Assembly: GCA_018970045.1 (NCBI GenBank)
Contig: JAGWXC010000004.1
Coordinates: 1 to 35,994 of the forward strand
Direction: 5' to 3'
Length of the DNA: 35,994 bases
Origin: Planctomycetota bacterium
GTDB lineage: Bacteria; Planctomycetota; Phycisphaerae; Phycisphaerales; SM1A02
Part shown: one piece after another, positions 8,470 to 35,994 of the stretch
How positions within the stretch are numbered: the stretch's first letter is position 1
How the letters are laid out: the number at the start of each line of letters is the position of its first letter
Made by a program: the position numbers and the translations under genes
The notes under the pieces: generated by a model
Told to the model about the DNA's origin: nothing
What the model saw: only the letters and a program-made list of their open reading frames with translations
The model's database searches: none

Positions 8470-11400
8470 TGGTCACCTCCACCGAAGATGGTCATGGCTG
8501 CACCGCAGCCGCATTCGCCCGAACGCACCGCGGCCGGATCCTGGCCGCGTCGGTACATCTCCCAGAACGCATCCTCGCGGGTGTCGAGCATGCGGGCGAG
8601 CAGCGTGGGCCCGCGTCGTCGGCCGCCTGCATCACCGTCGGGTTTCGTGGGTGGTCGGTCCATGCCACCCCGTTCGAACGCCGCCTCGAGCAACTGCGCT
8701 CGAAGCGCAGCGTCGTCGGCGCGGCGCTCACGATCGGCCACGCGGTCGAAGCGCTTCACACCCTCGATCCACGTCTGGTCACAGAGTGCGTAGCTCGACA
8801 GGGGATCGGTGGTCCAGACGACCAGGTCCGCATCCTTGCCGACCTCGAGGCTGCCGGTGCGGTGCCCGATGCCCAGCTGGATCGCTGGATTGATCGTCAC
8901 GAACTTGAGGGCTTCGGCAGGTTCGAGCCCGCCGTACCGACAGGCCTTCGCGGCTTCCGTGTTCATCCGTCGCGCGAGCTCATCGCTGTCGGAGTTGAAG
9001 CTCGTGAGCACGCCCTGGCCCGCCATGACCGCACCGTTGTGCGGGACGGCGTCCATGACTTCCATCTTGTAGGCCCACCAGTCGCTGAAGCTGCTCGCCC
9101 CCGCGCCATGGCGCGCGATGCGATCGGCAACCTTGTAGCCCTCGAGGATGTGCTGCAGCGTGGCGACCTTGAAGCCGAGTTCATCCGCGAGGTCCAGCAG
9201 CATCACGATCTCGTCCTGCCGGTAGGAGTGGCAGTGCACCACACGCTCGCCTGCCAGGATCTCGCCGAGCACCGTGAGTTCGTCATCCACGTGCGGCGGC
9301 ACGGTGCGCGCACGGGTGGACGCCGGCAGGGCGTTCCAGCGGGCCAAGGCCGCACGCTGCTCGGCCGCGGCGCGGAAGCGGTCGCGCATGTAGGCCTCCA
9401 CACCCATGCGAGTGTCGGGATAGCGATCGCGTGGTCGCACCACGTTCTCGCCCAGCGCGAACTTGATGCCCGGCTTCGCGTCCGGGATCGGGAAGGCCGA
9501 GGCCGGCTCGCCCCACTTGAGCTTGACCACGCTGTTGCGGCCGCCGATCGGGTTGGCGCTGCCGTGGAGCTGGTTCGCAGCGGTCAGCCCGCCAGCGAGC
9601 TGTCGATGCCAGTTGATGTCGGTGGGATCGATGACATCGCCGATGCCCACTTCAGCCGTGCACGCCTGGGTCCACTCGTTGACTTCGCCCAGCACGCCGG
9701 TGTGGCTGTGGCAGTCGATCAGGCCAGGCGTGATGTGGCGCCCGGCACCGTCGATCTCCTTCGTGCCCGCAGGCACGCTGAGCGCGCGCCCGATGGCTGC
9801 AATCTTGCCGCCATCGATGAGCACGTCGCAGCCTTCGATGATGCCCGCGGAAGCGCTCGTCCAGACCGTGGCGTTGCGGAGGACCGTTCGCTCGATCGCA
9901 CCAGGAACACGGTCGCCCTTGGCGGTTCGCTCAAAGCGCACACCCGCATCACCGAACGGCGCCGTCTTGAGCAGCGCCATCGCGGCAGGGAGCCGCGGAT
10001 CCTTCTCGGCGTCCGCGTCGTCCTTTGTTGCTGCTGCGGTCTGCGCGGCCGGGTCGCCACCGGGCTCCTTGGCCGGAGTAGCCGGGCCATCACCGTCAGC
10101 GGCGGGAACCGTTGCATCGGCAACCATCGTCCACACCGTGCGTGCGCCCTGCGGCGTCACGCTTTCGATGCGGATGGCTCGGCCGTCGGCTTCACCGACC
10201 ACGCGCACGCGCACCGCGGCATCGATCGTGCCGGCCGGTGCCACGAAGGCGATGGTGCGCTGGCCAAGGTCGACCTTGTCAGCCTTGGCGAAACTGAGCT
10301 TCGTGCCCGCCTCGGCTTCCTCGGCCGGTGGCTTCATCAGGCTGATCGTGCCCTTCGTGAGGTCGATCGAGCCACGCACTGATCGATCGCCCGAGGTCAT
10401 CACGAAACCACCATCGATCGGCAGCATGGGTTGCGGCTTGACGATCGATTGGCGACCGGCGACCCAAACCCTTCGCACCTGTGCACCCTTCGCGGCCAGC
10501 GTGCCTTCCATGAGCACGACGTTGGCCATCGAGCCAGGCGCGATGCGACCATGCGTCGAGCCGAGTCCAAGCAGCGAGGCCGGCGTGGTCGTGAGCGCAG
10601 CGAGCGCGGCATCGGGCGAGAGCCCGTGCTCGACGGCCGTGCGCAGGCGTGCGTGCAGGTCGCCGCGATCCTTGAGTCGGTGCGTGGTCAGGGCCATCGT
10701 CACGCCACGTTCGGCCAGCAGCGCCGGATTCATGGGCGAGCACGCCCAGGTGCCCAGCTCGCGCAGCGAGATCTGGTCGGCACGACGTGGATTGGCAAGA
10801 TCAGGAGCCTTCGCGAAGTCGAGCGGCACCACGAGCGGCAGCCGGGTGGCCACGACCGCATCCAGCTCGCGGAACTCAAGTCCGCTGGCGACGCACCACC
10901 CGATCCAACCCGCTTCATCCAGGAGACGCTTGGTGTGGAGCACGGCGTGCTCATCGCTGCACTCGACGACGAAGGGCAGTGCGCGGGCACCGGACTTGGG
11001 CAGGCACGGAGCCAGCGCCGTGAGCGCGGCGCTCGCGCGTGGCGGTTCCTGACCTGTTGGTTGCGCAGACCACGCGAGGGACGCCTGTCTGGACCACGCA
11101 GCATCGCGCATGACCTGGCGCACGAGCGCGATCGCACCCATGCGTGAGGCGGGATAGGCCACGGCGCGCGGACTGTCGAAGGGTGGTTCCTGGCCCTCGG
11201 GCGGCGTGAAGCGGTCGAAGGCGGCCACTTGGCCAAGGTCCTCACCGAGCCAGATCACATTCGTGTCTTCGGCAGCCAGCGTCAGCGCGGCACCACTGCC
11301 ACGCAAGGCACCGGACGATGGCCACGCTGCAGCCACGCAGAAGCCAGCATCGCGAAGGCCATCGCGCGTCGATGCTGCGGGTAGCTGCGCATCGCGCACC

Positions 11401-11780
11401 CGGACCTGTGGCGTCACCCGTGGATTCCAGTGGGCATCGGCCTGTGATCCTGCGGCGCGCGCCTGCGCGGTCGTGTCGACCGGCAGATAAGGCTCGATGA
11501 AGCCCGCGTACGCCGTCAAGCCCGTGCAGTCATGCGACGTTGCACCAGCGGGGATCGGCGTCGAGGCAGCGGGACCGACCGCCACGATCCAGCCATCCTT
11601 CATGACGATCGTGGCGTCGTCGATCACCGTTCCGGGCTGCGTGACGACGGTGCAGTGCACGAGCGCGTCGTGGCGCACATCGCTCGGGCGCATGCCGTTG
11701 GGCGGCGCCACTTGCGCCATGGCGGTTGACGCGATCAGCCCAAGGACGCCGCAGGTCACGGAGATCATGGACCGCAGCAT
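8466..11780 (-). CDS. Secreted tandem-domain amidohydrolase (degenerate N-terminal module plus intact C-terminal module)
   Basis: N half: GLTAYAGFIEPYLPVD (no HxH) ... SLLGLGSTHGRIAPGSMANVVLMEG; C half: GLIDCHSHTG, VHCHSYRQDEI, QHILEGYK, NPAIQLGIGHRTGSLEVGKDADLVVW. ATGA overlap with the downstream paralogue. Confidence 0.88.
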   Translation of the reverse strand: MLRSMISVTCGVLGLIASTAMAQVAPPNGMRPSDVRHDALVHCTVVTQPGTVIDDATIVMKDGWIVAVGPAASTPIPAGATSHDCTGLTAYAGFIEPYLPVDTTAQARAAGSQADAHWNPRVTPQVRVRDAQLPAASTRDGLRDAGFCVAAAWPSSGALRGSGAALTLAAEDTNVIWLGEDLGQVAAFDRFTPPEGQEPPFDSPRAVAYPASRMGAIALVRQVMRDAAWSRQASLAWSAQPTGQEPPRASAALTALAPCLPKSGARALPFVVECSDEHAVLHTKRLLDEAGWIGWCVASGLEFRELDAVVATRLPLVVPLDFAKAPDLANPRRADQISLRELGTWACSPMNPALLAERGVTMALTTHRLKDRGDLHARLRTAVEHGLSPDAALAALTTTPASLLGLGSTHGRIAPGSMANVVLMEGTLAAKGAQVRRVWVAGRQSIVKPQPMLPIDGGFVMTSGDRSVRGSIDLTKGTISLMKPPAEEAEAGTKLSFAKADKVDLGQRTIAFVAPAGTIDAAVRVRVVGEADGRAIRIESVTPQGARTVWTMVADATVPAADGDGPATPAKEPGGDPAAQTAAATKDDADAEKDPRLPAAMALLKTAPFGDAGVRFERTAKGDRVPGAIERTVLRNATVWTSASAGIIEGCDVLIDGGKIAAIGRALSVPAGTKEIDGAGRHITPGLIDCHSHTGVLGEVNEWTQACTAEVGIGDVIDPTDINWHRQLAGGLTAANQLHGSANPIGGRNSVVKLKWGEPASAFPIPDAKPGIKFALGENVVRPRDRYPDTRMGVEAYMRDRFRAAAEQRAALARWNALPASTRARTVPPHVDDELTVLGEILAGERVVHCHSYRQDEIVMLLDLADELGFKVATLQHILEGYKVADRIARHGAGASSFSDWWAYKMEVMDAVPHNGAVMAGQGVLTSFNSDSDELARRMNTEAAKACRYGGLEPAEALKFVTINPAIQLGIGHRTGSLEVGKDADLVVWTTDPLSSYALCDQTWIEGVKRFDRVADRERRADDAALRAQLLEAAFERGGMDRPPTKPDGDAGGRRRGPTLLARMLDTREDAFWEMYRRGQDPAAVRSGECGCGAAMTIFGGGDQ

Positions 11781-11788
11781 AGATCGAT

Positions 11789-11819
11789 GAACAGCGCCCG
11801 CTCACGGGCGGCACTGTTC
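11789..11819. promoter_or_regulatory. Hairpin immediately upstream of the tandem amidohydrolase gene
   Basis: GAACAG-CGCCCG-CTCA-CGGGCG-GCA-CTGTTC: two 6-bp stem segments with one 3-nt bulge, ending 8 nt before the ATG at 11780. Confidence 0.45.
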
Positions 11820-11874
11820 GGCTGACCATCGTTCCGTGACGGTCAGTGGCTTGTGGAGGCCGCGTTGGCGGCGA

Positions 11875-12195
11875 TCAGTCCATCTCGTCGAGCATGCGCT
11901 CGATGGCCTTGTTCAGGACCACATCAGGGTCATACGAGCCCTGCTGGAGCTGTTCCTTGATCTTGGCGATCTTGGCCTGCCGCACATCGGGCATGGCACG
12001 GAGCTGATCGAGTCGGCGATCGTGCTCGGATGCAGCCTTCGGGTCCTGGTCAGCAGGAGAAGGCTCGCTGCAACATTCAGTGGCCAGACGCAGTCCGTGA
12101 GCCGCTCCAGTCGAGCCGCAGCAGGAGGACCGATCGGTGAAAGCAGGGGCCGCGCTCAGGGCCGAGGTGCCGTCGTTTCGCAAGTCAATCGACAT
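11875..12195 (-). CDS. FlgM-like anti-sigma factor family protein
   Basis: C-terminus RAMPDVRQAKIAKIKEQLQQGSYDPDVVLNKAIERMLDEMD matches the FlgM pattern (VRxxKVxxIKxxIxxGxYxxD). Start at ATG 12195 (MSIDLRNDG). Confidence 0.65.
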   Translation of the reverse strand: MSIDLRNDGTSALSAAPAFTDRSSCCGSTGAAHGLRLATECCSEPSPADQDPKAASEHDRRLDQLRAMPDVRQAKIAKIKEQLQQGSYDPDVVLNKAIERMLDEMD

Positions 12196-12450
12196 GGCAA
12201 ACTCCAGGTAGACGGGCCTTGAGTCCTTCCTCGGCACCGCCCAAGGTTGTCGGGGACATCCATGGTGGCTGCGGCTGGATCACACACAACAGGATGTGTG
12301 AGCCGCAAAAGAGGGTATCGACACACGGCCGCTTCATTCTTGAGGGATTCAACGCCACCAACGACGAATATCGCGCGAAATCCCGACACAATCCGCTTAT
12401 GATCCTGCGCCGCGCGTGCATCGCCACCGCCGATCGACCAGCGGAGTGTT

Positions 12451-23926: not shown

Positions 23927-24658
23927 CTATCGAAGGAGTTCCGCATCCTCGATGCGGTAGAGGCCCAGCACCAGGCCACCGATCGCGAACGGTTCGAGCA
24001 CCAACCGACCGCGCAGCGTGCCGAAGCGGATCTGGTGCTGCAGCGAGAAGTCGATCGGCGTACGGGTCTTCACCAGTGCCGAGTCGTAGGGCGTAGGCGG
24101 CAGGCCGATGCAGCAACCATCCCAGCGGTTCAGCATGAGCACGAGTTCATCGGTCGATGGCGCAATGATCGCAGGTGCGTAATAGCCGCTCAGTTCGATC
24201 CATGTGCCGCCGAGCAGTTCGAGCGTTCGCGGCATGGCATCGAAGGTGCCATCGCCGCGCACATGACCACTGGCCTGGCCGAGCAGTTCCCAGGAGACGC
24301 GGAACGGTTGACGTTCGGTCCCGGCGCCGGGCGGCATGGTTGCCGCGGACGTCGCAACAGCGCTCACACCAGCCGTGGCGGGCACATCAGATGGCCTCGT
24401 CTCGGATCGTGCTGTGGGCGCAACCGCCGCGGTTCCTGCCGCGGAGCCTTGAACAGCCTGAAGCGGCGCAGAGTCGGTGGTTGCGCCATCAGGTCGATGG
24501 CCTGCTGGTTCGTTCGCACCCACGTCGTCCTTGCGCGCCTGGTCGAGCAGTTCCCACGGCGGAGCGTCGCACGATTCGGGCGCGGTCGTTCGCGGATCGC
24601 GTAGCGACCACACCGCTGCGACCAAGAGCAGCGCCAGCAGGGCCCACAGGACTCTCAT
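23927..24658 (-). CDS. DUF3299-like protein with N-terminal signal anchor
   Basis: MRVLWALLALLLVAAVWSL; WIELSGYYAPAIIAPSTDELVLMLNRWDGCCIGLPPTPYDSALV...GTLRGRLVLEPFAIGGLVLGLYRIEDAELL. ATGA overlap with the upstream gene. Confidence 0.75.
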   Translation of the reverse strand: MRVLWALLALLLVAAVWSLRDPRTTAPESCDAPPWELLDQARKDDVGANEPAGHRPDGATTDSAPLQAVQGSAAGTAAVAPTARSETRPSDVPATAGVSAVATSAATMPPGAGTERQPFRVSWELLGQASGHVRGDGTFDAMPRTLELLGGTWIELSGYYAPAIIAPSTDELVLMLNRWDGCCIGLPPTPYDSALVKTRTPIDFSLQHQIRFGTLRGRLVLEPFAIGGLVLGLYRIEDAELLR

Positions 24659-26028
24659 GGACCGAAGACCTGGCGCAGGATCGCGTCCTTCACGCAGCGC
24701 ATCGGGACCTGGGCATCCAATCGATCGTCATCGCAGAGCAGGATCGGTTCGAGACCGCGGGCCACGTTGCTGCGGCCATGCGATCCGCGCACGATCGACG
24801 GGTCGAGCGGAACCACATCGAGCAGGTTGCGCATGCCCAGCTTGCGCAGCGCAAGCTTGCCCGCCGTGCGCAGGCCCAACAGCGGTCGCGTGGGATCCAT
24901 GAAGAGCTCGCAGGGGTCGTAGCCCGGCTTGCGGTGGATGTCGACGGTGCGCGCGAAGTCAGGCGCGTGCGCATCATCGAGCCACCAGGGATAGGCGAAC
25001 CACGCATCCTGCTCGGCGATGCAGACGAGGTCGCCGCTGCGCGCATGACCGATCCCGAGTGCATCCTGGGCCGAACGATCGAGCACCGACTCCACGCCAT
25101 CGACTCGCTCAAGCAGGTGTGCAACACGGCTGACGTCCCGTGCATGCCGCACGTACACGTGCGCGATCTGGTGGTCACAGACCGCGAAGGCGTCGCTCTG
25201 GCCCGCATCGAGGAGTTCCGTGCCGCGCTCGTCCCGCAGCGACAGAAGATCGGCGCCACGCAGTTCGCGATTGAGGCAGATCGCCCGGCTGACCGGCGCG
25301 ATGCCGTATTCGCTGACCACCATGACGCGCACGCCACGTGCCGAGAAGAAACCATGCAGCACGTCGACGACACGGTCGATCTCACGGAGCTCCTGCTGCG
25401 CTTCGCGCGTGCCGGGACCATGCTTCTGCAGGACGTAGTCCAGATGCGGCAGATAGACCGTGTGCAGCGTCGGGGCGAAGCGTTCCTCGACCAACATCGC
25501 AGCGCGTGCGATCCAGTCGGTGCTCTGGATGCCGGCCTTGGGGCCCCAGAAGTTGAAGAGCGGAAAGCGGCCGAGCTCATGCTGCAGCGTGTCGCGCAGG
25601 CCGGCGGGATCGGTCCAGACATCGGGGATCTTCCGGCCATCGGCTGGGTACTGCGGCCGTGGCGTGACCGTGACGTCGGTCGAGCCGTGCATGGCGTACC
25701 ACCAGAACGAGTTCGCGCTGGTGAAGCCGGCGTCGCGCGCACGGGCCTCGTCCCACACCCGTGGTGCCTGAACGAGCGCGGCGGACTGCTTCCAGAAGTG
25801 GACTTCGTTCAGTGACCTGTCGAACCAGCCGTTGCCCACGATCCCGTGTGCGGAAGGATCGACGCCCGTGAGCATGGTGACCTGGGCCGCGCAGGTCACG
25901 GCCGGCAGCGGGGCGACCATCGTGCGCACGCCGCCCATGCTCCGGGCAAGGTCGCGCAGCTTGGGCGCACCCGAACCGAGCAGCCCGGGCGAGAGGCCGA
26001 CGACGTTGAGGACGGCCACGCGATGCAT
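24655..26028 (-). CDS. eboF: EboF-like alkaline phosphatase / type I phosphodiesterase family protein
   Basis: VLNVVGLSPGLLGSGAPKLRDLARSMGGVRTMVAPLPAVTCAAQVTMLTGVDPSAHGIVGNGWFDRSLNEVHFWKQSAALVQAPRVWDEA...PRPQYPADGRKIPDVWTDP...FPLFNFWGPKAGIQSTDWIA...TVYLPHLDYVLQKHGPG. Start at 26028, overlapping the upstream stop (TGATG). Confidence 0.72.
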   Translation of the reverse strand: MHRVAVLNVVGLSPGLLGSGAPKLRDLARSMGGVRTMVAPLPAVTCAAQVTMLTGVDPSAHGIVGNGWFDRSLNEVHFWKQSAALVQAPRVWDEARARDAGFTSANSFWWYAMHGSTDVTVTPRPQYPADGRKIPDVWTDPAGLRDTLQHELGRFPLFNFWGPKAGIQSTDWIARAAMLVEERFAPTLHTVYLPHLDYVLQKHGPGTREAQQELREIDRVVDVLHGFFSARGVRVMVVSEYGIAPVSRAICLNRELRGADLLSLRDERGTELLDAGQSDAFAVCDHQIAHVYVRHARDVSRVAHLLERVDGVESVLDRSAQDALGIGHARSGDLVCIAEQDAWFAYPWWLDDAHAPDFARTVDIHRKPGYDPCELFMDPTRPLLGLRTAGKLALRKLGMRNLLDVVPLDPSIVRGSHGRSNVARGLEPILLCDDDRLDAQVPMRCVKDAILRQVFGP

Positions 26029-28151
26029 CAGGAACCCGCAACGCGGCGCTGCGCGGTACGCGTGATCCACCAGCAGCCGAGCGCGACGACGGAAAGGCCC
26101 GGCGCACCGAGCACGCTGAGCGTGCTCGCATCGAGCAGGCAGAACGCGGCGATCCATGCGGCCACGCCGCCGGCGATGCGCGTGGGGTGACTTCGCATGG
26201 CGCGCTCGGCATGCAGGCTCTTGACGAGGAAGATCCCGCCGCAGAAGAGGGCCATCGGCAGAGCGACGATCGTCATGACCTGCAGCATCCCGCGTGCGCC
26301 ACCCGCCACGACAGGGCTGAACGCCCACGGCACGAGCACGGCAATCACGAGCAGCACGCGCACCCACACTCGCGGGGGTTGTGGTGCGGCCATGGCTGCA
26401 TCGTCGGTCGACACTGCTTCATCACGCGCCAGGAGCGACACGGCGACCGTCGACGCGAAGGCCATGAGCCCGGGGAAGAGCACGAGCCCCCAGGCGCTGA
26501 CCGACGAACCGTTGTACTGCATGCCCGACACGCTCATGACCGACAGCGTGGCGCACCAATAGGCCAGGGCACGGCAGAGACCCATCAGCACCACGCTGCC
26601 GCGCCACGACCGATGCGTGAGCGAGTACGCCACGATGGCGGCCACGAGCAGCAGGACGGCCTCGAAGCCCCAGGGCGTGCGCAGGTCCGCATGACGCCAG
26701 TGATCCAGCCAGTTCCAGAGGATCGCTCCCACGCCGACCACCGCCCAGGCTTCACCCAGCCACTGGATCGCATTGCGCTGGCCCTTCGAGAAGCTGCCGA
26801 AGGCAAGACCGACGGCAATCGCCGCAAGCCCCGGGATCGGGAACGATCCGCCACCGACGAGCCAGACGCCGGTCGAAACCAGCGTGGCGGCCAGCAGGAT
26901 CGCCGGGCGCAGGCCGACGCGACCGCTGGGAAGCGGGCGGGCCGGTCGCTCGTGCGCATCGACGTCACGATCGAGGAGATCGTTGAGCACCATGCCGAAG
27001 AGGTAGAGCAAGCAGATGCCTGCGATGACACCCACATGTCGCGGCATCCAATCGACGAAACGCTCGATGGTCGCCTGTCCGGCGAGCAGGTGTGCAACCC
27101 AGAGCCCGACCAACGCGTTGGTCGCCACGGTCAGCACGTTGGAGATGCGCGTGAGCTCGAGCCATGCCCAGATGCCATGGCGTGGCAGCGGCGTGGCATG
27201 CGGTGCGGGTTCCGTAGCGATGGTGCGCGCGGGTTGCTCCTGCACGACCGTCTGATCGGCTCCGGTCTCGAGGCGACGGCTTGGCATGCCATGCAGGGCG
27301 ATGACCGGCGCGCGGCCACTCGTATCACTGGGTTCGACGCGGCGGAAGGTCGGAGCTTCGGGGATCGAGGCGGGCTCAGGGACGACCGTGGATCCAGCAG
27401 CGTCCATGACCTCAACAAGGTCCGCATCTGGCGTCGACTCGGGGGTCGCCATCGGTTCCGCGGCCTTGATGGCATCGGCATGATCATCCTGCTCGCCAGG
27501 CTGCACCGATTCGGCGTCGACCTCGGTCACGGCATCCAGCGAGGCATCCACCACGGGCTCGATGGCAGATTCGTCGCCAAGGCCGGCGATGGGGGCCTCC
27601 ACGATGTCGGCTGCGCTGCTCGCTGGTGTCTCGATTCCATCGTCACGATCAGCACGCGCAGCCGCAGCCGGTGCTGCGACCTCGATCAGAGTTTCGCTTG
27701 CGTCGAGCAACGACGTACGGTCGTCGTGGCTCGCTGTGGGTTCGAGCCCCAAAAGAGCTGGCCCAGCGTCTTCGGCTGACCCGGCGTCTTCGGTTGGCCC
27801 GGCGTCTTCGGTTGGCCCAGCGTCTTCGGTTGGAGCAGCGTCTTCACCTGGCGCAGCATCTTCCGTCGTTGGCGTGACGTCGATCTGGCTGATCGCCTCC
27901 GGCTTGGGCTCGACTGACTCCCAGGCATCGATGGTCTCGACCGCGCGTGGCGCCGTCAGCGATGGATCCTCATCGCCCCATGCCGCGAGCGTGTGGCCGG
28001 GCTGCGGAGCTGCAGGTTCGTGCATCTGCACTTCGGGCACGCTGTCCATCGAGGGTGGATCGATGCCTTCGAGGTCGGCCGCCACGATGTGGTCGAAGAG
28101 GCCGGGCTGCTCATCATCCTGCTTGCGTCGAGTGCGATCTCCGTTCGCCAT
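26028..28151 (-). CDS. eboC: EboC-like UbiA-family prenyltransferase with long acidic N-terminal extension
   Basis: C-terminal ~380 aa: WLELTRISNVLTVATNALVGLW...LYLFGMVLNDLLDRDVDAHERPARPLPSGRVGLRPAILL (NDxxDxxxD) plus multiple TMs; N-terminal ~320 aa is low-complexity and Glu/Asp/Ala-rich. Confidence 0.75.
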   Translation of the reverse strand: MANGDRTRRKQDDEQPGLFDHIVAADLEGIDPPSMDSVPEVQMHEPAAPQPGHTLAAWGDEDPSLTAPRAVETIDAWESVEPKPEAISQIDVTPTTEDAAPGEDAAPTEDAGPTEDAGPTEDAGSAEDAGPALLGLEPTASHDDRTSLLDASETLIEVAAPAAAARADRDDGIETPASSAADIVEAPIAGLGDESAIEPVVDASLDAVTEVDAESVQPGEQDDHADAIKAAEPMATPESTPDADLVEVMDAAGSTVVPEPASIPEAPTFRRVEPSDTSGRAPVIALHGMPSRRLETGADQTVVQEQPARTIATEPAPHATPLPRHGIWAWLELTRISNVLTVATNALVGLWVAHLLAGQATIERFVDWMPRHVGVIAGICLLYLFGMVLNDLLDRDVDAHERPARPLPSGRVGLRPAILLAATLVSTGVWLVGGGSFPIPGLAAIAVGLAFGSFSKGQRNAIQWLGEAWAVVGVGAILWNWLDHWRHADLRTPWGFEAVLLLVAAIVAYSLTHRSWRGSVVLMGLCRALAYWCATLSVMSVSGMQYNGSSVSAWGLVLFPGLMAFASTVAVSLLARDEAVSTDDAAMAAPQPPRVWVRVLLVIAVLVPWAFSPVVAGGARGMLQVMTIVALPMALFCGGIFLVKSLHAERAMRSHPTRIAGGVAAWIAAFCLLDASTLSVLGAPGLSVVALGCWWITRTAQRRVAGS
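27766..27873. repeat. In-frame 18-bp tandem repeat (about 6 units, last units degenerate)
   Basis: GCGTCTTCGGCTGACCCG / GCGTCTTCGGTTGGCCCG / GCGTCTTCGGTTGGCCCA / GCGTCTTCGGTTGGAGCA / GCGTCTTCACCTGGCGCA / GCATCTTCCGTCGTTGGC; encodes (T/A/G)EDA(G/A)(P/S) hexapeptides. Confidence 0.9.
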
Positions 28152-28217
28152 GCCGGGAGCCTACCGCGCACGCAAGGCATCCCCGTGGTTCGTCCGGCAT
28201 GCAGGGCGAGCGGCACG

Positions 28218-29378
28218 TCAGGTCACGAGCCCGCATTCTGCCATGCGGCTGCGTGCCCAGCGGAGTTCCTGCGCGATCCCATCGGCCAGCGAGGCCATGC
28301 GGTGGTCCATCGGCAAGGCTCCCCAGGCGTAGGTCTCGGCCTCGAAGTCGGTGATGCCGTCTTCGGGGCGGATGGCGGCAAGGCACGAGATGACATCGGC
28401 CTGCGTCGTCCCAAGCACGCCACCCTGGCCGAGCCGATCGGCGAAGAGCGGCACATGGAAGTGCGTCCGCCACAGCCCGTCAGGAGCATGATCAAAGGCA
28501 CGATCGAGGTCGGTGAAGAGATGGCGCTCGCCGGTGCCATCCAGCACGCACGTCTGGTGCAGGTAGACCGGCTCGTCGAAGTGCCGAAGGGCGCGGAACG
28601 CCCGATCGCTGGAGGGACACTCGATCGCGCTCGAGAGCTGCACCTTGCCCACGCGGATGCCTGCATCCCGGTACGCCTGCAGCACGCTCGCCTGGTCCTC
28701 GAACATGACGGCGGCGTGGCAGGTGTCGTGGCAGACGCGGATGTAGCGGCGCAGGTCCGGCTCGCCGGCCCGCTGGCGCAGGACCTGGTCGAAGAAGCCC
28801 GTCACGTCGCGCGAGGTGTCGAGCATGCAGCCCGGCTCGGGCTCAAGATCGAGATGGATGCACCGCCCCGTGCGTTCCTCAAGCCGCGCTGCGTGGCGCG
28901 CGAACTGCTCGAGCTGGGCGCTCGCCAGGCCGACGCTGCTGCCGCAGCCCTCCAGCGAGAAGGAGAGTCGCCAGCCCAGCGGCAGCGTGCTGATGCCCGC
29001 TTCCCGGCGGTCATCGTGGAGGAGGTCCACCAGGAGATCCGCAAGATCGATCGAGAAGAGCAGCCGGCGCGCGTTGGCCCAGTTGGGTTCGTAGACCGAT
29101 TGCTTCACGCGCTTGGCGTGGAAGTCCCCGTAGGGAAAGCCGTTGATCGTGAAGACTCGCAGGCCACGCTCGTCCAGCCACGCACGAAGCCGTGCGGCTC
29201 CGTCATCCTGCTCCTTGAGTTCGAAGACCGCACGCGCGCTCAGCCAGAGCCCGATGTCGAGCCACGCGACGTCGAGCTCGCGCCGCACCGCCGTGGCGTG
29301 CCGATCGAGCTGCTCCTTGGCCTCGGTCAGCGTGGCTCCGGCGTGCACGTTCGTGCAGTAGCCCAGCGTGGCCTTCAT
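28218..29378 (-). CDS. eboE: Metabolite traffic protein EboE-like (xylose isomerase-like TIM barrel)
   Basis: MKATLGYCTNVHAGATLTEAKEQL...IGLWLSARAVFEL...RAWLDERGLRVFTINGFPYGDFHAKRVKQSVYEPNWANARRLLFSIDLADLLVDLL...ISTLPLGWR; recognisable EboE signature. Confidence 0.85.
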   Translation of the reverse strand: MKATLGYCTNVHAGATLTEAKEQLDRHATAVRRELDVAWLDIGLWLSARAVFELKEQDDGAARLRAWLDERGLRVFTINGFPYGDFHAKRVKQSVYEPNWANARRLLFSIDLADLLVDLLHDDRREAGISTLPLGWRLSFSLEGCGSSVGLASAQLEQFARHAARLEERTGRCIHLDLEPEPGCMLDTSRDVTGFFDQVLRQRAGEPDLRRYIRVCHDTCHAAVMFEDQASVLQAYRDAGIRVGKVQLSSAIECPSSDRAFRALRHFDEPVYLHQTCVLDGTGERHLFTDLDRAFDHAPDGLWRTHFHVPLFADRLGQGGVLGTTQADVISCLAAIRPEDGITDFEAETYAWGALPMDHRMASLADGIAQELRWARSRMAECGLVT

Positions 29379-30025
29379 CGGCTCGCCTCGACGAGCCGTT
29401 GCACGATGCCATCGCCCATCAGCCGATCCGGCGTGCGCTCGGGATGCCACTGCACGCCGATGGCGAAGGCCCGGCTCGGATCGCGGATCGCCTCGATCAC
29501 GCCATCGTCGCTTCGACCGATGAGTTCATACGGACCCGCATCACCAAGGGCCTGGTGATGCCAACTCGCGACCGGCCCGTTGCCGAGCTCGCTGGTGACC
29601 TCATGGATGCGGTCATGGCGGTGGCGCTCACCGTCGGCGATCTCGTCGTGCAGGTGCTGGATCAGGCGGCATCCACGATGCACGCCCATGAGTTGCATGC
29701 CCAGGCAGATGCCCAGGACCGGCACGTCGGGGTGCTCGTCGAGCCAGCGAAGCGTGGCGAATTCAGCCTCCTGGCGCTCAGGGAGCATGCACTCCGCCTT
29801 CGCGTGCAGGGGAATGCCCAGCGGCCGGGTGTCGATGTCGTCGCCACCGGTCATCATCACGCCATCGACGGCAGCGAGCATGCGCGCCCGTTCGCCAGCG
29901 ATGCAGGGCAGGATGAGCGGAGTGCCACCGGCACGCAGCACGGCCTGCACGTACGTGTCGTTGAGGCGGTGGCGAAGCCGACCGCCATCGTCGACGAGAT
30001 CAGCAGTGATTCCGATGACGGGCAT
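29375..30025 (-). CDS. Class I glutamine amidotransferase, gamma-glutamyl-gamma-aminobutyrate hydrolase-like (PuuD family)
   Basis: MPVIGITADLVDDGGRLRHRLNDTYVQAVLRAGGTPLILPC; GVMMTGGDDIDTRPLG; VPVLGICLGMQLMGV (nucleophile Cys); GVQWHPER. ATGA overlap with eboE. Confidence 0.88.
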   Translation of the reverse strand: MPVIGITADLVDDGGRLRHRLNDTYVQAVLRAGGTPLILPCIAGERARMLAAVDGVMMTGGDDIDTRPLGIPLHAKAECMLPERQEAEFATLRWLDEHPDVPVLGICLGMQLMGVHRGCRLIQHLHDEIADGERHRHDRIHEVTSELGNGPVASWHHQALGDAGPYELIGRSDDGVIEAIRDPSRAFAIGVQWHPERTPDRLMGDGIVQRLVEASR

Positions 30026-30060: not shown

Positions 30061-31074
30061 ATGCGCATCGCCTTCGCCACGTCGATCCTGCTGGCTCTTG
30101 GGGCTGCACGCATGCTCGAGCCCACGCCCGCCGAACTCTTGGCCCAGGAGGCGAAGGCCTTCCTCGAGGCGCTCGATCCAGCACAGCGCGCTCAGGCCTG
30201 CGTGGCGATCGATGCCCCGGCCCGCACGGCGTGGTCGTTCGTGCCGGGGGACCGGCCCGGCATCAGGCTCGATGCGTTGCAGCCGCAGCAGCGTGAGCGG
30301 GCGCTGTCGATGGCTCGACGTGCGTTGAGTGACCACGGCTGGAAGGTGGTGCGTGGCGTCTTCGCGCTCGAGGGCATGCTCGCTGCCGGGCAGCCCGATC
30401 GCTACAACCCGCTCTGGTACGACGTGCTCGTCTTCGGCGATCCGATGGTGCCGCCATGGGGGATGCGTCTGGAGGGTCATCACCTCTCGCTACAGGTCAT
30501 GAGCGATGGTGCGCAGGTCACGGCGACGCCGATGTTCATCGGGGTCGCACCGTTCACCGTCAAGGGCGGCGAGCTCGATGGCTTCTCGCCCTTGGGTCGC
30601 GAGCGCGACCTTGCGTTCGTGCTCTGGGGCATGCTGTCACCCGAGCAACGCACGAAGGCGCGCCTGGGGACCGAGGCCCCGGCGGACGTTTTCGGCGTGC
30701 CCGGTGGCGAGGCGCGCCTGAAGGAGCGCGCGGGCCTTGAGGCCATGCACATGACCCGCGAGCAGCGCGATGTGCTCTGGTCGCTCGTGCGTGCGTTCGC
30801 CGCCAGGCTCGCGACCCCGTTCGAGAAGGCCGAGGTCGCGCGGTGGCGCGCCGCAAGCGTCGATGCGATGGTGTTCGCGTGGATGGGCGGCGATGAGCCC
30901 GGTCAGCGGCATTACTTCAGGATCGTGGGCGACGGATTTGCGATCGAGGTCGACTGCACCAGCGGCGTGGACCATGTGCATGCGGTCTGGCATGATCTGG
31001 GTCGCAACTTCGGCGATCCATTCCTCAAGCATGCGAAAGAGCATGCAGCAGGAACGGCGCACACGCACCCGTGA
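30061..31074 (+). CDS. DUF3500-like protein
   Basis: N-terminal hydrophobic signal; WGMRLEGHHLSLQVMSDGAQVTATPMFIGVAP; RHYFRIVGDGFAIEVDCTSGVDHVHAVWHDLGRNFGDPFLKHAKEH. Confidence 0.78.
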   Translation: MRIAFATSILLALGAARMLEPTPAELLAQEAKAFLEALDPAQRAQACVAIDAPARTAWSFVPGDRPGIRLDALQPQQRERALSMARRALSDHGWKVVRGVFALEGMLAAGQPDRYNPLWYDVLVFGDPMVPPWGMRLEGHHLSLQVMSDGAQVTATPMFIGVAPFTVKGGELDGFSPLGRERDLAFVLWGMLSPEQRTKARLGTEAPADVFGVPGGEARLKERAGLEAMHMTREQRDVLWSLVRAFAARLATPFEKAEVARWRAASVDAMVFAWMGGDEPGQRHYFRIVGDGFAIEVDCTSGVDHVHAVWHDLGRNFGDPFLKHAKEHAAGTAHTHP

Positions 31075-31177: not shown

Positions 31178-33703
31178 TCACTGCCCCGGCTGTGCGCGCT
31201 GGCGGTTGGCCCATTCCGCACCGGCCTGTTCGACGTAGGCGATCAGGTCGATGATGTCATCCTTTGAGAAGGAATCGAGCAGATGCGCCGGCATCGGGCT
31301 GATGGCCGAAAGGGCCCGCGCACGGATCCGCGCCACCGGTACCTCCTGCCGCACCTTGCCGTAGGGGTCGACGGTCAGCGTGACGATGCCTTCACGCTCG
31401 CCGAGGATGCGCCCTGTGACGGTCGATCCATCATCGAGCGTGAGCGTGGTGAAGGCATACTGGTCGCTCACCACCTTGCTCGGCTCGAGGATCGCGGTGA
31501 TGAAGTCGGCGCGCGAGAAGCGGCTGCCGGCGGCCGTGATGTCTGGCCCGATCGACTCGCCCGAGTCGGCGAACCGATGGCACTGCAGGCACATGCCGGC
31601 TTCGAGCACCCGTCGCCCGTTGCCGAGGTTGCGAGGCGTGGTCGCTTCGGCCAAGTGCGCGTAGAGCGCCTCGAGCTTCCACTCGGTGAGCGGCTTGCCG
31701 CCGCCGGTGGCGGCCGGCGCGCGCTCCTCGCGCATCGCCGCCCGCATGCGCTCGTAGGCCTCGCGCTCGTCTGCTGGGGTTCGCTCGTTCACCTGGCGCT
31801 CGATCGCATCGACGAAGCCCTGCAGGCTGAAGCCACCACGGAAGGCTCGTGCATCCTCGATCCAGAGGATGAGCGACCGGCGCTGGTCAGGCGTGAGGTC
31901 GCTGCGCAGGCGCAGCGGCATCGCGAAGGCCATGGCATCGGTGCCCTCGGTCGACTCCAGGAGTTCCACCGTCGTGGCGATGGCCTCGGGCGAGCCAAGG
32001 CCCACGAGCAGTTCGGCAAGCGACCGGTCGAGCGCCACATCGCCGGAGGAATAGAGCTTGCCCAGGGCCGTGATGACCGAGTCTGCCGCATTGGGTGCAG
32101 GCTGTACGGTCGACCACTCGCTCGCGTGCTCGCTGCACCATGACGTCCCGCCCAGCCGCGCGGTCGCGATCGTCGCCATGCGCGCCAAGCCTTGCCGGCA
32201 TTCGACTTGGTTGCACAGTGGGAAGTCCGCCATGATCGCTGGCAGCATCGTCAGCAGGTGGCAGCGATCTTCGTTCGACCCCACGCGGGCGAGGGCGACC
32301 ATGAGCTCCAGGCGCGCACGGAAGGTGATCGTGGCATCGCTCACGCGCGCACGCCAAGCATCGACCGGCAGGGCTTCGATCGCCAAGCGCGTCGTGAAGC
32401 GCGTGAAGCGGTCAGGCGAGCCGAGCAGCGGCAGCAGCGTGACCAGTCGTTCGTTGGTGGCCGTTGCATCGGGTGCGGGCCCCGAGAGCATGGGCTTGAG
32501 CGCGAGTCGCTCGGTGACGTGCGGCGGCGTCGGCGCCAGTTCCTCTTGGCCTTGCCACGGATCCTTCGCGGCAATCCGGTAGAGGCCGCTCTGGGTCCCA
32601 CGGCCACCGGTTGCCACGTACATCGCGCCACCGGGACCGAACTCGATGTCGGTCACCGGCATCGGTCGACCCGTGGCAAAGGGCTCCCACCGTCCGCGCC
32701 AGGTCGTGCCATCACGAACCAGTTCGACGGCGAGGATGCGCCCGTAGGACCAGTCCGCGATGAAGAGCCGATCGCGCCAGGGCGCCGGGAACGAACTGTT
32801 GCGTGCAAAGGTCACGCCGACGGGGCTCGCAGGATCCGTGTCGACGACGGCAGGGAGCGTGTCGATCGCGGTCGGGTGCAGCTTGGCGCTGCCGGATCGC
32901 CAGCCGAAGTCGCCGCCCTCGACCAGGTGCAGCACGCGCGGGGCGCGGTACCACGGTGCACCGATGTCCCACTCCATGTCGCTGTCGTAGGTCATGGCCT
33001 CGCCATCGACGGTGAAGTCGATGTCGCAGGCGTTGCGCATGCCGCAGGCCACGATCTCGCAGCGCGAGCCATCGGTGGCGCATCGCACCAGCATGCCGCC
33101 GGGCGCCATGATGCCGTGCGCGTGGCCGCGAGGATCCCACTCGCGCTCCATGACGAGGTCCTCCGCCCAGTGGCGCACGGGCGAGTCCTTCGCCGCGCAC
33201 TCCGGCACCGGCACATGGTTGCCCAGGATCGCCCAGATGCGGCCATCGGGTCCCTTGCGGATGCCGTGCACGCCGTGCTCGCCACCGCCACCCCAGGCGT
33301 AGAGCCGCTCATGCCGGTCATAGGTGCCGTCGCCGTCGGTGTCGGTCAGCTTCCACAATCCGCCGCCATCCTTGGGTTCGCGCGTGCTGTTGGCCCAGAG
33401 CACATTTGCATCAACGCAGAGTCCGTGCACATCACGCACCGGGACATCCAGCGGCGTGATCGTGGGCGGCGTGATGGACAGGTCGATGCGGTGCAGGCCT
33501 TCGTACTGCGAGCCGACGATCGCGCGCCCCTGCTCGTCGAAGCACATGGAGATCCATGATCCATGCCCCTCACCTGCGCTGGCGAGCAGCTCGATCGTGA
33601 ACCCCTCGGGCACCGTGATCATGTCGGCCGGCGGAGCCTGGCCGCCACCGGCGATGGCAGGAGCGACCAGGAAGAGCGACGCCGTCAGGCCAATGGTGCG
33701 CAT
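31178..33703 (-). CDS. PVC-type heme-binding CxxCH protein (membrane-bound dehydrogenase-like beta-propeller, HEAT-like region, c-type cytochrome domain)
   Basis: Signal peptide; VPEGFTIELLASAGEGHGSWISMCFDEQGRAIVGSQYEGLHRI; LFIADWSYGRILAVEL; C-terminal MCLQCHRFADSGESIGPDITAAGSRFSRADFITAILEPSKVVSDQYAFTTLTLDDGSTVTGRIL. Confidence 0.9.
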   Translation of the reverse strand: MRTIGLTASLFLVAPAIAGGGQAPPADMITVPEGFTIELLASAGEGHGSWISMCFDEQGRAIVGSQYEGLHRIDLSITPPTITPLDVPVRDVHGLCVDANVLWANSTREPKDGGGLWKLTDTDGDGTYDRHERLYAWGGGGEHGVHGIRKGPDGRIWAILGNHVPVPECAAKDSPVRHWAEDLVMEREWDPRGHAHGIMAPGGMLVRCATDGSRCEIVACGMRNACDIDFTVDGEAMTYDSDMEWDIGAPWYRAPRVLHLVEGGDFGWRSGSAKLHPTAIDTLPAVVDTDPASPVGVTFARNSSFPAPWRDRLFIADWSYGRILAVELVRDGTTWRGRWEPFATGRPMPVTDIEFGPGGAMYVATGGRGTQSGLYRIAAKDPWQGQEELAPTPPHVTERLALKPMLSGPAPDATATNERLVTLLPLLGSPDRFTRFTTRLAIEALPVDAWRARVSDATITFRARLELMVALARVGSNEDRCHLLTMLPAIMADFPLCNQVECRQGLARMATIATARLGGTSWCSEHASEWSTVQPAPNAADSVITALGKLYSSGDVALDRSLAELLVGLGSPEAIATTVELLESTEGTDAMAFAMPLRLRSDLTPDQRRSLILWIEDARAFRGGFSLQGFVDAIERQVNERTPADEREAYERMRAAMREERAPAATGGGKPLTEWKLEALYAHLAEATTPRNLGNGRRVLEAGMCLQCHRFADSGESIGPDITAAGSRFSRADFITAILEPSKVVSDQYAFTTLTLDDGSTVTGRILGEREGIVTLTVDPYGKVRQEVPVARIRARALSAISPMPAHLLDSFSKDDIIDLIAYVEQAGAEWANRQRAQPGQ

Positions 33704-33765
33704 GCGGCCATGCTAGGCCGGAGGACGTCGTTCACGATGGGCGCGACCGTGACCAGCCGCCATCG

Positions 33766-35313
33766 TCAGGGCTTCGGGATCCTGTTCAGCGTGTACATCG
33801 TCAGGTCGTGCAGCAGTCGCTCGCCGTCGGCCGCACGCTTGAGGCCCGCAGCACGCAACTCATGCACGAAGGTGGGTCGCAGGCCCTCGATCGAGAGTTC
33901 GATCACGAGCCCGTCCTCACTCACGGCCTTCGGCGTGACGACCAGTTGCTTCGTCTCGATCTCGGGGCTGCCGTAGGGCTCGAAGTACCAGTAGGTGTAG
34001 CTCGACATCGACCAGGTCGTCGGGTCGAGCGCGCTCGCACGATCGACCGGCTGCGTGGTCGTGATGCGGAATCCTGATGGGGTCGCGCGCATCGACAGGA
34101 TCTCGAAGGGAACCTCGCCCTTCCACGAGAGTCGCTGCAGGCCTTCGCTGCGCGAGCCCGCACTGGCCCAGCCACGGTTCGTCTCGCCGCAGAGGATCGT
34201 GCCGGGCGACTCAAGCGCGATGCGGATGATGCCGCAGTCGAATCCGTGGCGGAACGGGAAGACCGCCCCCTGCCACTGGCCGTCGACCTTCTCGAGGTCG
34301 ATGCGGTTGATCGTGGCGGCGTACTGGTCGGGCACGAGGCACTGGCCTGCAAAGGGTCCGAACGAACCCTCGGGCAGCCACAGCGGATTGCCCGGGCTGC
34401 GACCGGCCTTGTCGAAGGGGAGCCAGACCGCGGGCAGTCGGTAGTTCGGCATGCGCTCTGCCGCCTGGCCCTGCGTGATGCGGTTGGGATGTTCGCCCTT
34501 GCTGCCGTCGGCGTTGGGAGCGGGCCACGTGACCAGAGACTCAGGCCGCGCGGTGTCATCGACGCCGAAGGGATGGCCGTGGTAGTCACCGCGCACGAGC
34601 TGGCTGAGCTTGCTCGTGGCGCACCACTCGCCCTGGTTGTCGGTGTAGAAGACATCGCCCCACGGCGCGACGCCGACGCCGCACGGGCTGCGCAGCCCGG
34701 CGCACTCGTAGCTGATCGATCCATCGGGCGCCACGCGCACGGCCCAGCCGCGCCAGCGCGGTCGGCCGAAGGGTTCCTCGCCGAAGCCGCGGTTCAGCGT
34801 GATCCACGCCGATCCATCGGGCGTGAAGGCAGGACCGAAGGCGTACTCGTGGTAGTTGCCGCTGATGTCCCAGCCATCCTGCACGGTCTCGAAGACATCG
34901 CCTCGACCATCGCCATCGGCGTCACGGAACCGCGTGAGCTCGCCGCGCTGCGTCATGTAGATCCACTGGTCATCGCCGGGCTTGCGGGCCAAACCCATCG
35001 GCTCAAGCAGGCCATCGGCGTAGAGCGTCCAGGCAGGCTTCGCGCCGGGCTGTTCGGTGACCAACCACAGTTCACCGCGACGCGTGCAGACGAGCGTTCG
35101 TCCGCCACCCATGGGCAGGATGCCGCTGACCTCGGGCACCACGGCTTGGGGCCACTCGATCGTGGAGATGGCGCTGTAGACCGCCTCGCGCTCGGCCTGC
35201 GAACGATTGATCGAGGTCTGGGTGGCGCGCGAGGCGTCGTCGCCCTGGGCATGCCCGGGCGCTGCAGCGACGAAGGCCATGGCCACGATCGCGAGTCGAG
35301 AGATCATCACCAT
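33766..35313 (-). CDS. Secreted glucose/sorbosone-dehydrogenase-like beta-propeller protein
   Basis: N-terminal signal; TLYADGLLEPMGLARKPGDDQWIYMTQRGELTRFRDADGDGRGDVFETVQDGWDISGNYHEYAFGPAFTPDGSAWITLNRGF; CGVGVAPWGDVFYTDNQGEW. Confidence 0.8.
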   Translation of the reverse strand: MVMISRLAIVAMAFVAAAPGHAQGDDASRATQTSINRSQAEREAVYSAISTIEWPQAVVPEVSGILPMGGGRTLVCTRRGELWLVTEQPGAKPAWTLYADGLLEPMGLARKPGDDQWIYMTQRGELTRFRDADGDGRGDVFETVQDGWDISGNYHEYAFGPAFTPDGSAWITLNRGFGEEPFGRPRWRGWAVRVAPDGSISYECAGLRSPCGVGVAPWGDVFYTDNQGEWCATSKLSQLVRGDYHGHPFGVDDTARPESLVTWPAPNADGSKGEHPNRITQGQAAERMPNYRLPAVWLPFDKAGRSPGNPLWLPEGSFGPFAGQCLVPDQYAATINRIDLEKVDGQWQGAVFPFRHGFDCGIIRIALESPGTILCGETNRGWASAGSRSEGLQRLSWKGEVPFEILSMRATPSGFRITTTQPVDRASALDPTTWSMSSYTYWYFEPYGSPEIETKQLVVTPKAVSEDGLVIELSIEGLRPTFVHELRAAGLKRAADGERLLHDLTMYTLNRIPKP

Positions 35314-35994
35314 GCGAGCTCCGTGCGCACGATGGCGCCGTAGGGGAATGAAGGATCATTTGAGGGCTGCAGCGGCACGCCCGCCACCAGTTCCGTTCGG
35401 CCATCGACGGTGCGCACGAAGGGCCGTGCACCGCTCACGAAGAGCACAGGGCCGCCGTCGATGCGCCAGCCTTCGCCATCGGCGACGATCGACGAACCTT
35501 CGGCGAGCCTGAGCGAGATCGCCTCGTCGGTCGTGCGGGCCTTGATGGTGAACGTGCGGTTGAGCCGTGCGCCACCAGTGAAGAGCACCGTGCCCACCGC
35601 TTCATCCACACGCAGGCCATCCCGGCCAATCGAGAAGGTCGGGTTGCCGCGAGCATCGCGCTGCATGCCGAGGAATCGCAGACCACTGAGCGACGTGCTC
35701 GGCCACGGTGCATCAGGAGAGGAGAGCACCGCGACCACCGGGCCGGTGGCCACGGTCACGACCGAGGATCCAGCGGGCATGCTCAACTGACCGGCTCGGC
35801 CTCGCCATGTGCCCTCTGCATTCATGAACTTGCCCTTCCACGCCTTGGCCAGGCGCAGCCCGCCGGCGTCGTACACGGCCGAGACACGCTCAGGGAAACC
35901 GATCGCGTGGCAGCGCGCACCGACGCCTTCCATGAAGGTGCCGAAGACGATCGTGCGTGCATCGGGCTCAAGGTCATACTCGCCTGGGGCAACC
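35307..35994 (-). CDS. Partial secreted hypothetical protein (DUF6797-like?), 5' end outside window
   Basis: Frame stays open to the window end: VAPGEYDLEPDARTIVFGTFMEGVGARCHAIGFPERVSAVYDAGGLRLAKAWKGKFMNAEGTWRGRAGQ...; overlaps the start of the next gene. Confidence 0.6.
   Translation of the reverse strand, partial: VAPGEYDLEPDARTIVFGTFMEGVGARCHAIGFPERVSAVYDAGGLRLAKAWKGKFMNAEGTWRGRAGQLSMPAGSSVVTVATGPVVAVLSSPDAPWPSTSLSGLRFLGMQRDARGNPTFSIGRDGLRVDEAVGTVLFTGGARLNRTFTIKARTTDEAISLRLAEGSSIVADGEGWRIDGGPVLFVSGARPFVRTVDGRTELVAGVPLQPSNDPSFPYGAIVRTELAW

What the first reader, a model, noticed from the sequence alone, without database searches (positions are those of the whole stretch)
23927..30025. Reduced/rearranged ebo-type metabolite-traffic operon with new partners
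Five minus-strand genes are packed head to tail: class I glutamine amidotransferase, EboE-like TIM barrel, EboC-like UbiA prenyltransferase, EboF-like phosphodiesterase, DUF3299-like protein. Junctions are ATGA at 29375-29378, a 66-nt gap, TGATG at 26026-26030, and ATGA at 24655-24658. The ebo operon (eboA-F) is known from cyanobacteria and other bacteria and is linked to export of precursors such as the scytonemin monomer; its substrate elsewhere is poorly defined. Here eboA, the TatD-like eboB and the dehydroquinate-synthase-like eboD are absent from the window. An amidotransferase with an intact Cys/His motif and a DUF3299 protein take flanking positions. This could be a variant pathway handling a prenylated or glutamylated metabolite. 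The function is inference.
Basis: partly seen in the sequence, partly recalled or inferred. Interest (0 to 1): 0.85.

Follow-up and report, generated by a model that had tools for sequence, protein, structure and literature searches.

The report
Distal half of an EboG-type ebo operon
The five genes are one half of a known bacterial metabolite-handling operon (ebo); its "missing" genes lie just past the end of this contig, so the operon is split and decorated with extra genes rather than reduced.

Summary
In detail: five head-to-tail minus-strand genes at 23927-30025, with the junctions as described. EboE is certain (394 bits, cut-off 250). The UbiA and PF01663 proteins group with EboC and EboF in trees. 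The interpretation "reduced ebo operon" is wrong. The window is a whole contig. eboD, a 98-aa gene and eboB lie on contig C127, whose first bases overlap the window's last ~42 nt; in a same-genus genome both halves are on one contig, 7.6 kb apart. The small gene is the published eboG, the alternative to eboA: it matches its Deinococcus counterpart at 93 bits, and eboA is absent. The order DGBECF is identical in Deinococcus and about 25 Planctomycetota loci. The amidotransferase joined the locus once, in one Phycisphaerales clade, but occurs as a single-copy gene elsewhere in relatives, including one without ebo. The DUF3299-like paralog is locus-linked in 9 of 20 family genomes. Side result: every EboF examined lacks four of seven metal ligands of its family. 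Function remains inferred. New member of a known kind; interest moderate to low.

The parts
29375..30025 (-). Class I glutamine amidotransferase-like protein, PF07722 (gamma-glutamyl hydrolase family), 216 aa; C107, H194 and E196 intact and invariant in 13 locus-linked homologues
   Evidence: position between eboB and eboE in 25 loci
28218..29378 (-). eboE, xylose-isomerase-like TIM barrel, 386 aa; invariant E181, D218, H221, H274, E348 across phyla
   Evidence: NF035939 394 bits, cut-off 250; conserved residues
26028..28151 (-). eboC, UbiA-type membrane prenyltransferase, 707 aa, with a genus-specific ~325-residue acidic N-terminal extension; Asp motif NDLLDRDVDxxERPxRPLPSG intact
   Evidence: PF01040 5.2e-12; tree; extension shows a coding pattern against the same-genus genome
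24655..26028 (-). eboF, alkaline-phosphatase-fold (PF01663) protein, 457 aa; T45, D197 and H417 kept, metal ligands replaced by V10, Q201, E240, Y241
   Evidence: PF01663 2.3e-54; tree 99/97 with EboF of other phyla
23927..24658 (-). DUF3299-like protein, 243 aa; hydrophobic N-terminus, conserved RWDGCCIGxPPT motif
30061..31074 (+). DUF3500 protein (PF12006), divergent from the amidotransferase with 35 nt between the starts; recurs on the opposite strand next to the amidotransferase/eboE in relatives
   Evidence: PF12006 5.3e-67
31178..35994 (-). Genus-specific insert separating the two halves of the operon: an 841-aa DUF7133/cytochrome-c-like gene (31178-33703), a 515-aa DUF7133 gene (33766-35313) and the 3' end of a ~917-aa cytochrome c/PA14 gene cut by the contig end; eboB, eboG and eboD lie beyond it on contig C127

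Best explanation
The five genes are the distal half of a complete EboG-type ebo operon, ancestral order D-G-B-E-C-F, in a freshwater Phycisphaerales-type planctomycete. In this genus a ~7.6-kb insertion separates D-G-B (on the next contig) from E-C-F. A PF07722 amidotransferase entered once upstream of eboE in an ancestor, and a DUF3299-like gene follows eboF. Proposed mechanism, inferred from residues and literature: EboD makes a cyclitol-type intermediate from a sugar phosphate; EboB and EboE, with intact metal-site residues, modify it; EboC prenylates a substrate at the membrane; EboF acts with a remodelled alkaline-phosphatase-fold site; and the lipid-linked product helps move a small molecule to the periplasm, as shown genetically for the scytonemin monomer in Nostoc. 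Shown here: gene content, order, orthology, the split, and the residues. Inferred: every reaction, the substrate and transport.
For: EboE over cut-off. EboD, EboG and EboB contiguous on G000:C127. Both contigs map contiguously on G269:C8, and the window's last ~42 nt overlap the start of C127 with mismatches. Same order DGBECF in Deinococcus and about 25 Planctomycetota loci. The small protein matches Deinococcus at 93 and 78 bits and shows no relation to EboA. EboA absent, with a positive control at 188.7 bits. EboC and EboF trees. Active-site residues kept in EboB, EboD and EboE across phyla. Literature: EboG variant and predicted activities (PMC5133447), periplasmic export (PMC6282210).
Against: The EboC protein scores 71 bits on the EboC model (cut-off 250) and 78.5 on SCO3242 (cut-off 260), so it is a divergent member; the tree split from paralogs is 89/69, and two sets of long-branch UbiA paralogs fall inside. 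The contig join rests on an inexact overlap and synteny with another genome. No function of any Planctomycetota ebo gene has been tested. The insertion leaves the two halves as separate transcription units by position.
Confidence: 0.88

Rival explanations
1. A genuinely reduced ebo operon that lost eboA, eboB and eboD and works with new partners.
For: The window holds no eboA, eboB or eboD; EboA is absent from the genome.
Against: EboD (542 bits), EboB (539 bits) and EboG (135 bits) are in the genome and contiguous, next to the window end.
Confidence: 0.03
2. The amidotransferase (and perhaps the DUF3299-like protein) is a functional extension of the ebo pathway in one Phycisphaerales clade, for example hydrolysing a gamma-glutamyl bond on an ebo intermediate.
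For: One entry into the locus and none lost in resolved loci; tight coupling to eboE (ATGA overlap); catalytic residues invariant; the ebo-linked DUF3299-like copies were not found off-locus.
Against: A full-length single-copy PF07722 gene is present in nearly all genomes tested, usually elsewhere, including G168, which lacks eboB, eboE and eboG. Inheritance in one clade may only reflect descent.
Confidence: 0.2
3. The UbiA and PF01663 proteins are unrelated paralogs that merely sit beside eboE.
For: The EboC profile score is below cut-off.
Against: Both trees place them with ebo-locus proteins of other genomes and phyla, and the order E-C-F is conserved.
Confidence: 0.04

Closest known systems
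EboG-type ebo operon of Deinococcus (e.g. Deinococcus sp. QL22 plasmid, NZ_CP097151.1)
   Same: Same genes in the same order D-G-B-E-C-F; EboG homologous (93 bits), EboB 59.5% identical to that of a family relative of the window genome
   Different: Here D-G-B and E-C-F are split by a 7.6-kb insert, a PF07722 gene precedes eboE, a DUF3299-like gene follows eboF, and EboC has a long acidic N-terminal extension
ebo cluster of Nostoc punctiforme (scytonemin monomer export; PMC6282210)
   Same: EboB, EboC, EboE and EboF families shared
   Different: EboA there, EboG here; different gene order; no scytonemin pathway was looked for here
Streptomyces ebo-like cluster with inositol-3-phosphate synthase and SCO3242 prenyltransferase (NZ_CP109028.1)
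   Same: EboB, EboE, EboF and a related UbiA protein
   Different: Inositol-phosphate synthase instead of EboD, EboA instead of EboG, extra epimerase

Membership tests
ebo operon | EboE present over the curated cut-off | tested here: met
   NF035939 394 bits, cut-off 250
ebo operon | EboB (TatD-like) present in the genome | tested here: met
   G000:C127:2795-3589, 539 bits with the ebo-locus profile
ebo operon | EboD (sugar-phosphate-cyclase-like) present and distinct from housekeeping AroB | tested here: met
   G000:C127:3934-5073, 542 bits; the other copy at C264 scores 177
ebo operon | UbiA-type protein in the EboC clade | tested here: met
   Tree split from MenA/CtaB/DPPR-type paralogs 89/69; the NF035940 cut-off itself is not reached (71 of 250 bits)
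ebo operon | PF01663 protein in the EboF clade | tested here: met
   99/97 clade with EboF of Deinococcus, Streptomyces, Azospirillum, Aureibacter
ebo operon, EboA type | EboA present | tested here: not met
   NF035938: none in G000; positive control G212 188.7 bits
ebo operon, EboG type | Short EboG in place of EboA, clustered with the ebo genes | tested here: met
   98-aa gene between eboD and eboB, homologous to the Deinococcus gene at the same place. The published EboG accession itself was not compared
ebo operon | All genes in one uninterrupted cluster | tested here: not met
   7.6-kb insert between eboB and the amidotransferase/eboE in the genus
ebo operon | Export of a metabolite precursor | not testable with these tools
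   Needs knockouts and metabolomics
PF01663 metal-dependent phosphodiesterase | Seven metal ligands of the nucleotide pyrophosphatase/phosphodiesterase type | tested here: not met
   D54->V10, H214->Q201, D257->E240, H258->Y241; T45, D197, H417 kept; the same pattern in all EboF examined
DUF3299 (PF11736) | Score over the gathering cut-off (22 bits) | tested here: not met
   No hit for the window protein at E<=0.1; best relative 20.1 bits

The most novel reading that the evidence does not exclude
EboF, in this locus and in every ebo operon examined, is not a metal-dependent phosphodiesterase: its alkaline-phosphatase-fold active site keeps the nucleophile threonine but has invariant Gln and Tyr (and Glu/Asp, Val/Ala) in place of four metal ligands. 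The ebo pathway would then contain a step of new chemistry, or a substrate-binding pseudo-enzyme.
Probability: 0.45. Interest if true: 0.55.

Novelty: new member of a known kind. Interest (0 to 1): 0.33.

Why it matters
The 2016 survey reported no clustering of ebo genes in its three Planctomycetes; here clustering is the rule across many Phycisphaerae, in the same order as Deinococcus, which extends the EboG variant. The case also shows how a contig edge produces an apparent gene loss. The EboF residue pattern gives a direct, testable reason to doubt the usual "phosphodiesterase" annotation of a protein required for scytonemin export.

Tried and rejected
Reduced operon: rejected, because eboB and eboD were found next door. 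Amidotransferase as an ebo-specific recruit: weakened, because it is single-copy and general in relatives. EboG as a divergent EboA: rejected (hhalign probability 0.1). EboG fold: no useful PDB match and no sequence match of note, so its function is not advanced. A first UbiA tree used wrong reading frames for some paralogs and was replaced. I first guessed that EboF KPGYDP matches the last metal histidine; the alignment puts GSHG (H417) there instead, so that ligand counts as kept; that alignment segment is weak on its own. EboE has no informative PDB relative by sequence.

Full report
OBSERVATION. The window (35,994 bases, 67% G+C) is exactly contig C96 of a 2.49-Mb, 332-contig assembly, 96.8% complete. 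The closest named relative found is a freshwater pond MAG (L146, Planctomycetota, matching the contig of same-genus genome G269).

IDENTITY. EboE passes its curated model with 394 bits (cut-off 250), the amidotransferase is PF07722, and the other two enzymes are PF01040 and PF01663. The UbiA protein does not pass the EboC model (71 of 250 bits), but EboC proteins at ebo loci of two relatives score low too (79 and 107 bits), while a relative with an EboA-type cluster scores 381. In a tree with MenA-, CtaB- and DPPR-synthase-type paralogs from related genomes, the window UbiA falls with the ebo-locus proteins (89/69). Two sets of long-branch UbiA paralogs also fall on that side, so this tree is moderate evidence. 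The PF01663 protein falls in a 99/97 clade with EboF of Deinococcus, Streptomyces, Azospirillum, Roseivivax and Aureibacter.

THE MISSING GENES. Profiles built from relatives find eboD (542 bits), a 98-aa gene (135 bits) and eboB (539 bits) side by side on contig C127 of the same genome. Against G269, the window end maps to position 11272 and the C127 start to 11313 of one continuous stretch (L107), so the contigs overlap by about 42 nt; the two ends are similar but not identical there, as strain variation would give. A cytochrome c/PA14 gene is cut by the join. So the two halves are separated by about 7.6 kb holding the cytochrome c/PA14 gene and two DUF7133-type genes, with a divergent DUF3500 gene next to the amidotransferase. 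The first three were seen only in this genus among the loci compared.

EBOG. The published survey (PMC5133447) describes a variant lacking eboA and carrying a short eboG, for example in Deinococcales, and says no clustering was seen in its three Planctomycetes. Two Deinococcus plasmids have DHQ-synthase-like, short hypothetical, TatD-like, EboE, UbiA and PF01663 genes in that order. Our small-protein profile matches those hypotheticals at 93 and 78 bits and a Gemmatirosa protein at 87 bits, and shows no relation to EboA. EboA is absent from the window genome and found in a positive control. I therefore call it EboG; the published accession itself was not compared. EboG folds as three helices with moderate confidence and no PDB match.

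GENE ORDER. Of about 140 loci scored with profiles, around 25 Planctomycetota loci show an uninterrupted DGBECF, as do both Deinococcus plasmids. In part of the window's family the PF07722 gene sits between B and E. On an EboD tree, 25 loci with it and 33 without need a single change (support 94); 32 further loci could not be scored because their contigs or flanks end or the halves are apart. Some relatives have dispersed the operon: G162 and G242 carry D, G-B and E-C in three places.

THE PARTNERS. The amidotransferase keeps C107, H194 and E196. A full-length homologue occurs once in 25 of 26 genomes searched, mostly away from ebo, and also in G168, which lacks eboB, eboE and eboG. It may be a general gamma-glutamyl hydrolase that joined the locus. 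The DUF3299-like protein has other paralogs across the family, and the highest-scoring copies all lie at ebo loci in 9 genomes; the profile was built from those copies, so this is partly circular.

RESIDUES. EboB, EboD and EboE keep metal-site-type residues across phyla. EboC keeps its first Asp motif. EboF does not keep the metal site of its family: in alignment with XaNPP (2gsn), D54, H214, D257 and H258 correspond to V10, Q201, E240 and Y241, while T90, D210 and H363 correspond to T45, D197 and H417 (ligand numbering from my knowledge of that enzyme). All 35 EboF sequences have LDYxxQ, none has SDH, and 34 have the Tyr (the other is truncated). The predicted EboF structure (pLDDT 88.5) matches phosphonoacetate hydrolase and NPP folds. 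The 2016 paper's text does not mention an EboF active site, and a library search for papers on this found none.

EBOC EXTENSION. The window's EboC and its same-genus counterpart carry an N-terminal extension of about 325 and 255 residues, rich in A, D, E and P. Third codon positions differ about twice as often as first and second, and the first ~85 residues and a stretch before the membrane domain are conserved, so it is translated protein rather than a wrong start.

FUNCTION. Only the Nostoc genetics (PMC6282210; [quoted passage not shown] EboC-type enzymes from marine bacteria farnesylate quinoline acids in vitro (PMC9235831). The scheme given as best explanation is inference from these and from the residues. 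Nothing here shows a substrate in Planctomycetota.

VERDICT. A complete, known-type ebo operon, split in this genus and seen through a contig edge; interest is moderate to low, with the EboF residues the point most worth testing.

Noticed in passing
window 35953-35994 and G000:C127:1-42 (L106): The window end and the start of C127 overlap by about 42 nt with several mismatches, suggesting that strain variation broke the assembly inside a cytochrome c/PA14 gene.
   Followed up: yes
window 26028-28151: Genus-specific ~325-residue acidic low-complexity N-terminal extension on EboC, conserved at both ends, variable in the middle.
   Followed up: partly
L042:1664-3832, L045:181-2328; also L133, L142, L162, L169: Tandem duplication of eboC; in L042 and L045 the second copy lacks the first Asp-rich motif.
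   Followed up: partly
L201 (Streptomyces sp. NBC_00663 plasmid) 808-2007 and 10970-12448: A ScyD/ScyE-family gene and a multicopper oxidase gene flank an ebo-like cluster in Streptomyces, a possible parallel to the periplasmic oxidation step of scytonemin.
   Followed up: no
window 30061-31074 (+): DUF3500 gene divergent from the amidotransferase (35 nt apart), recurring in opposite orientation near the amidotransferase/eboE in relatives.
   Followed up: partly
L135, L140: Contigs labelled Bacteroidia MAG12 and Limnohabitans MAG13 carry Phycisphaerales-like ebo genes, probably misbinned.
   Followed up: no
L106:5244-7641: An HtrA-like protease and a SpoU-type RNA methyltransferase gene lie upstream of eboD here and in many family loci.
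   Followed up: partly
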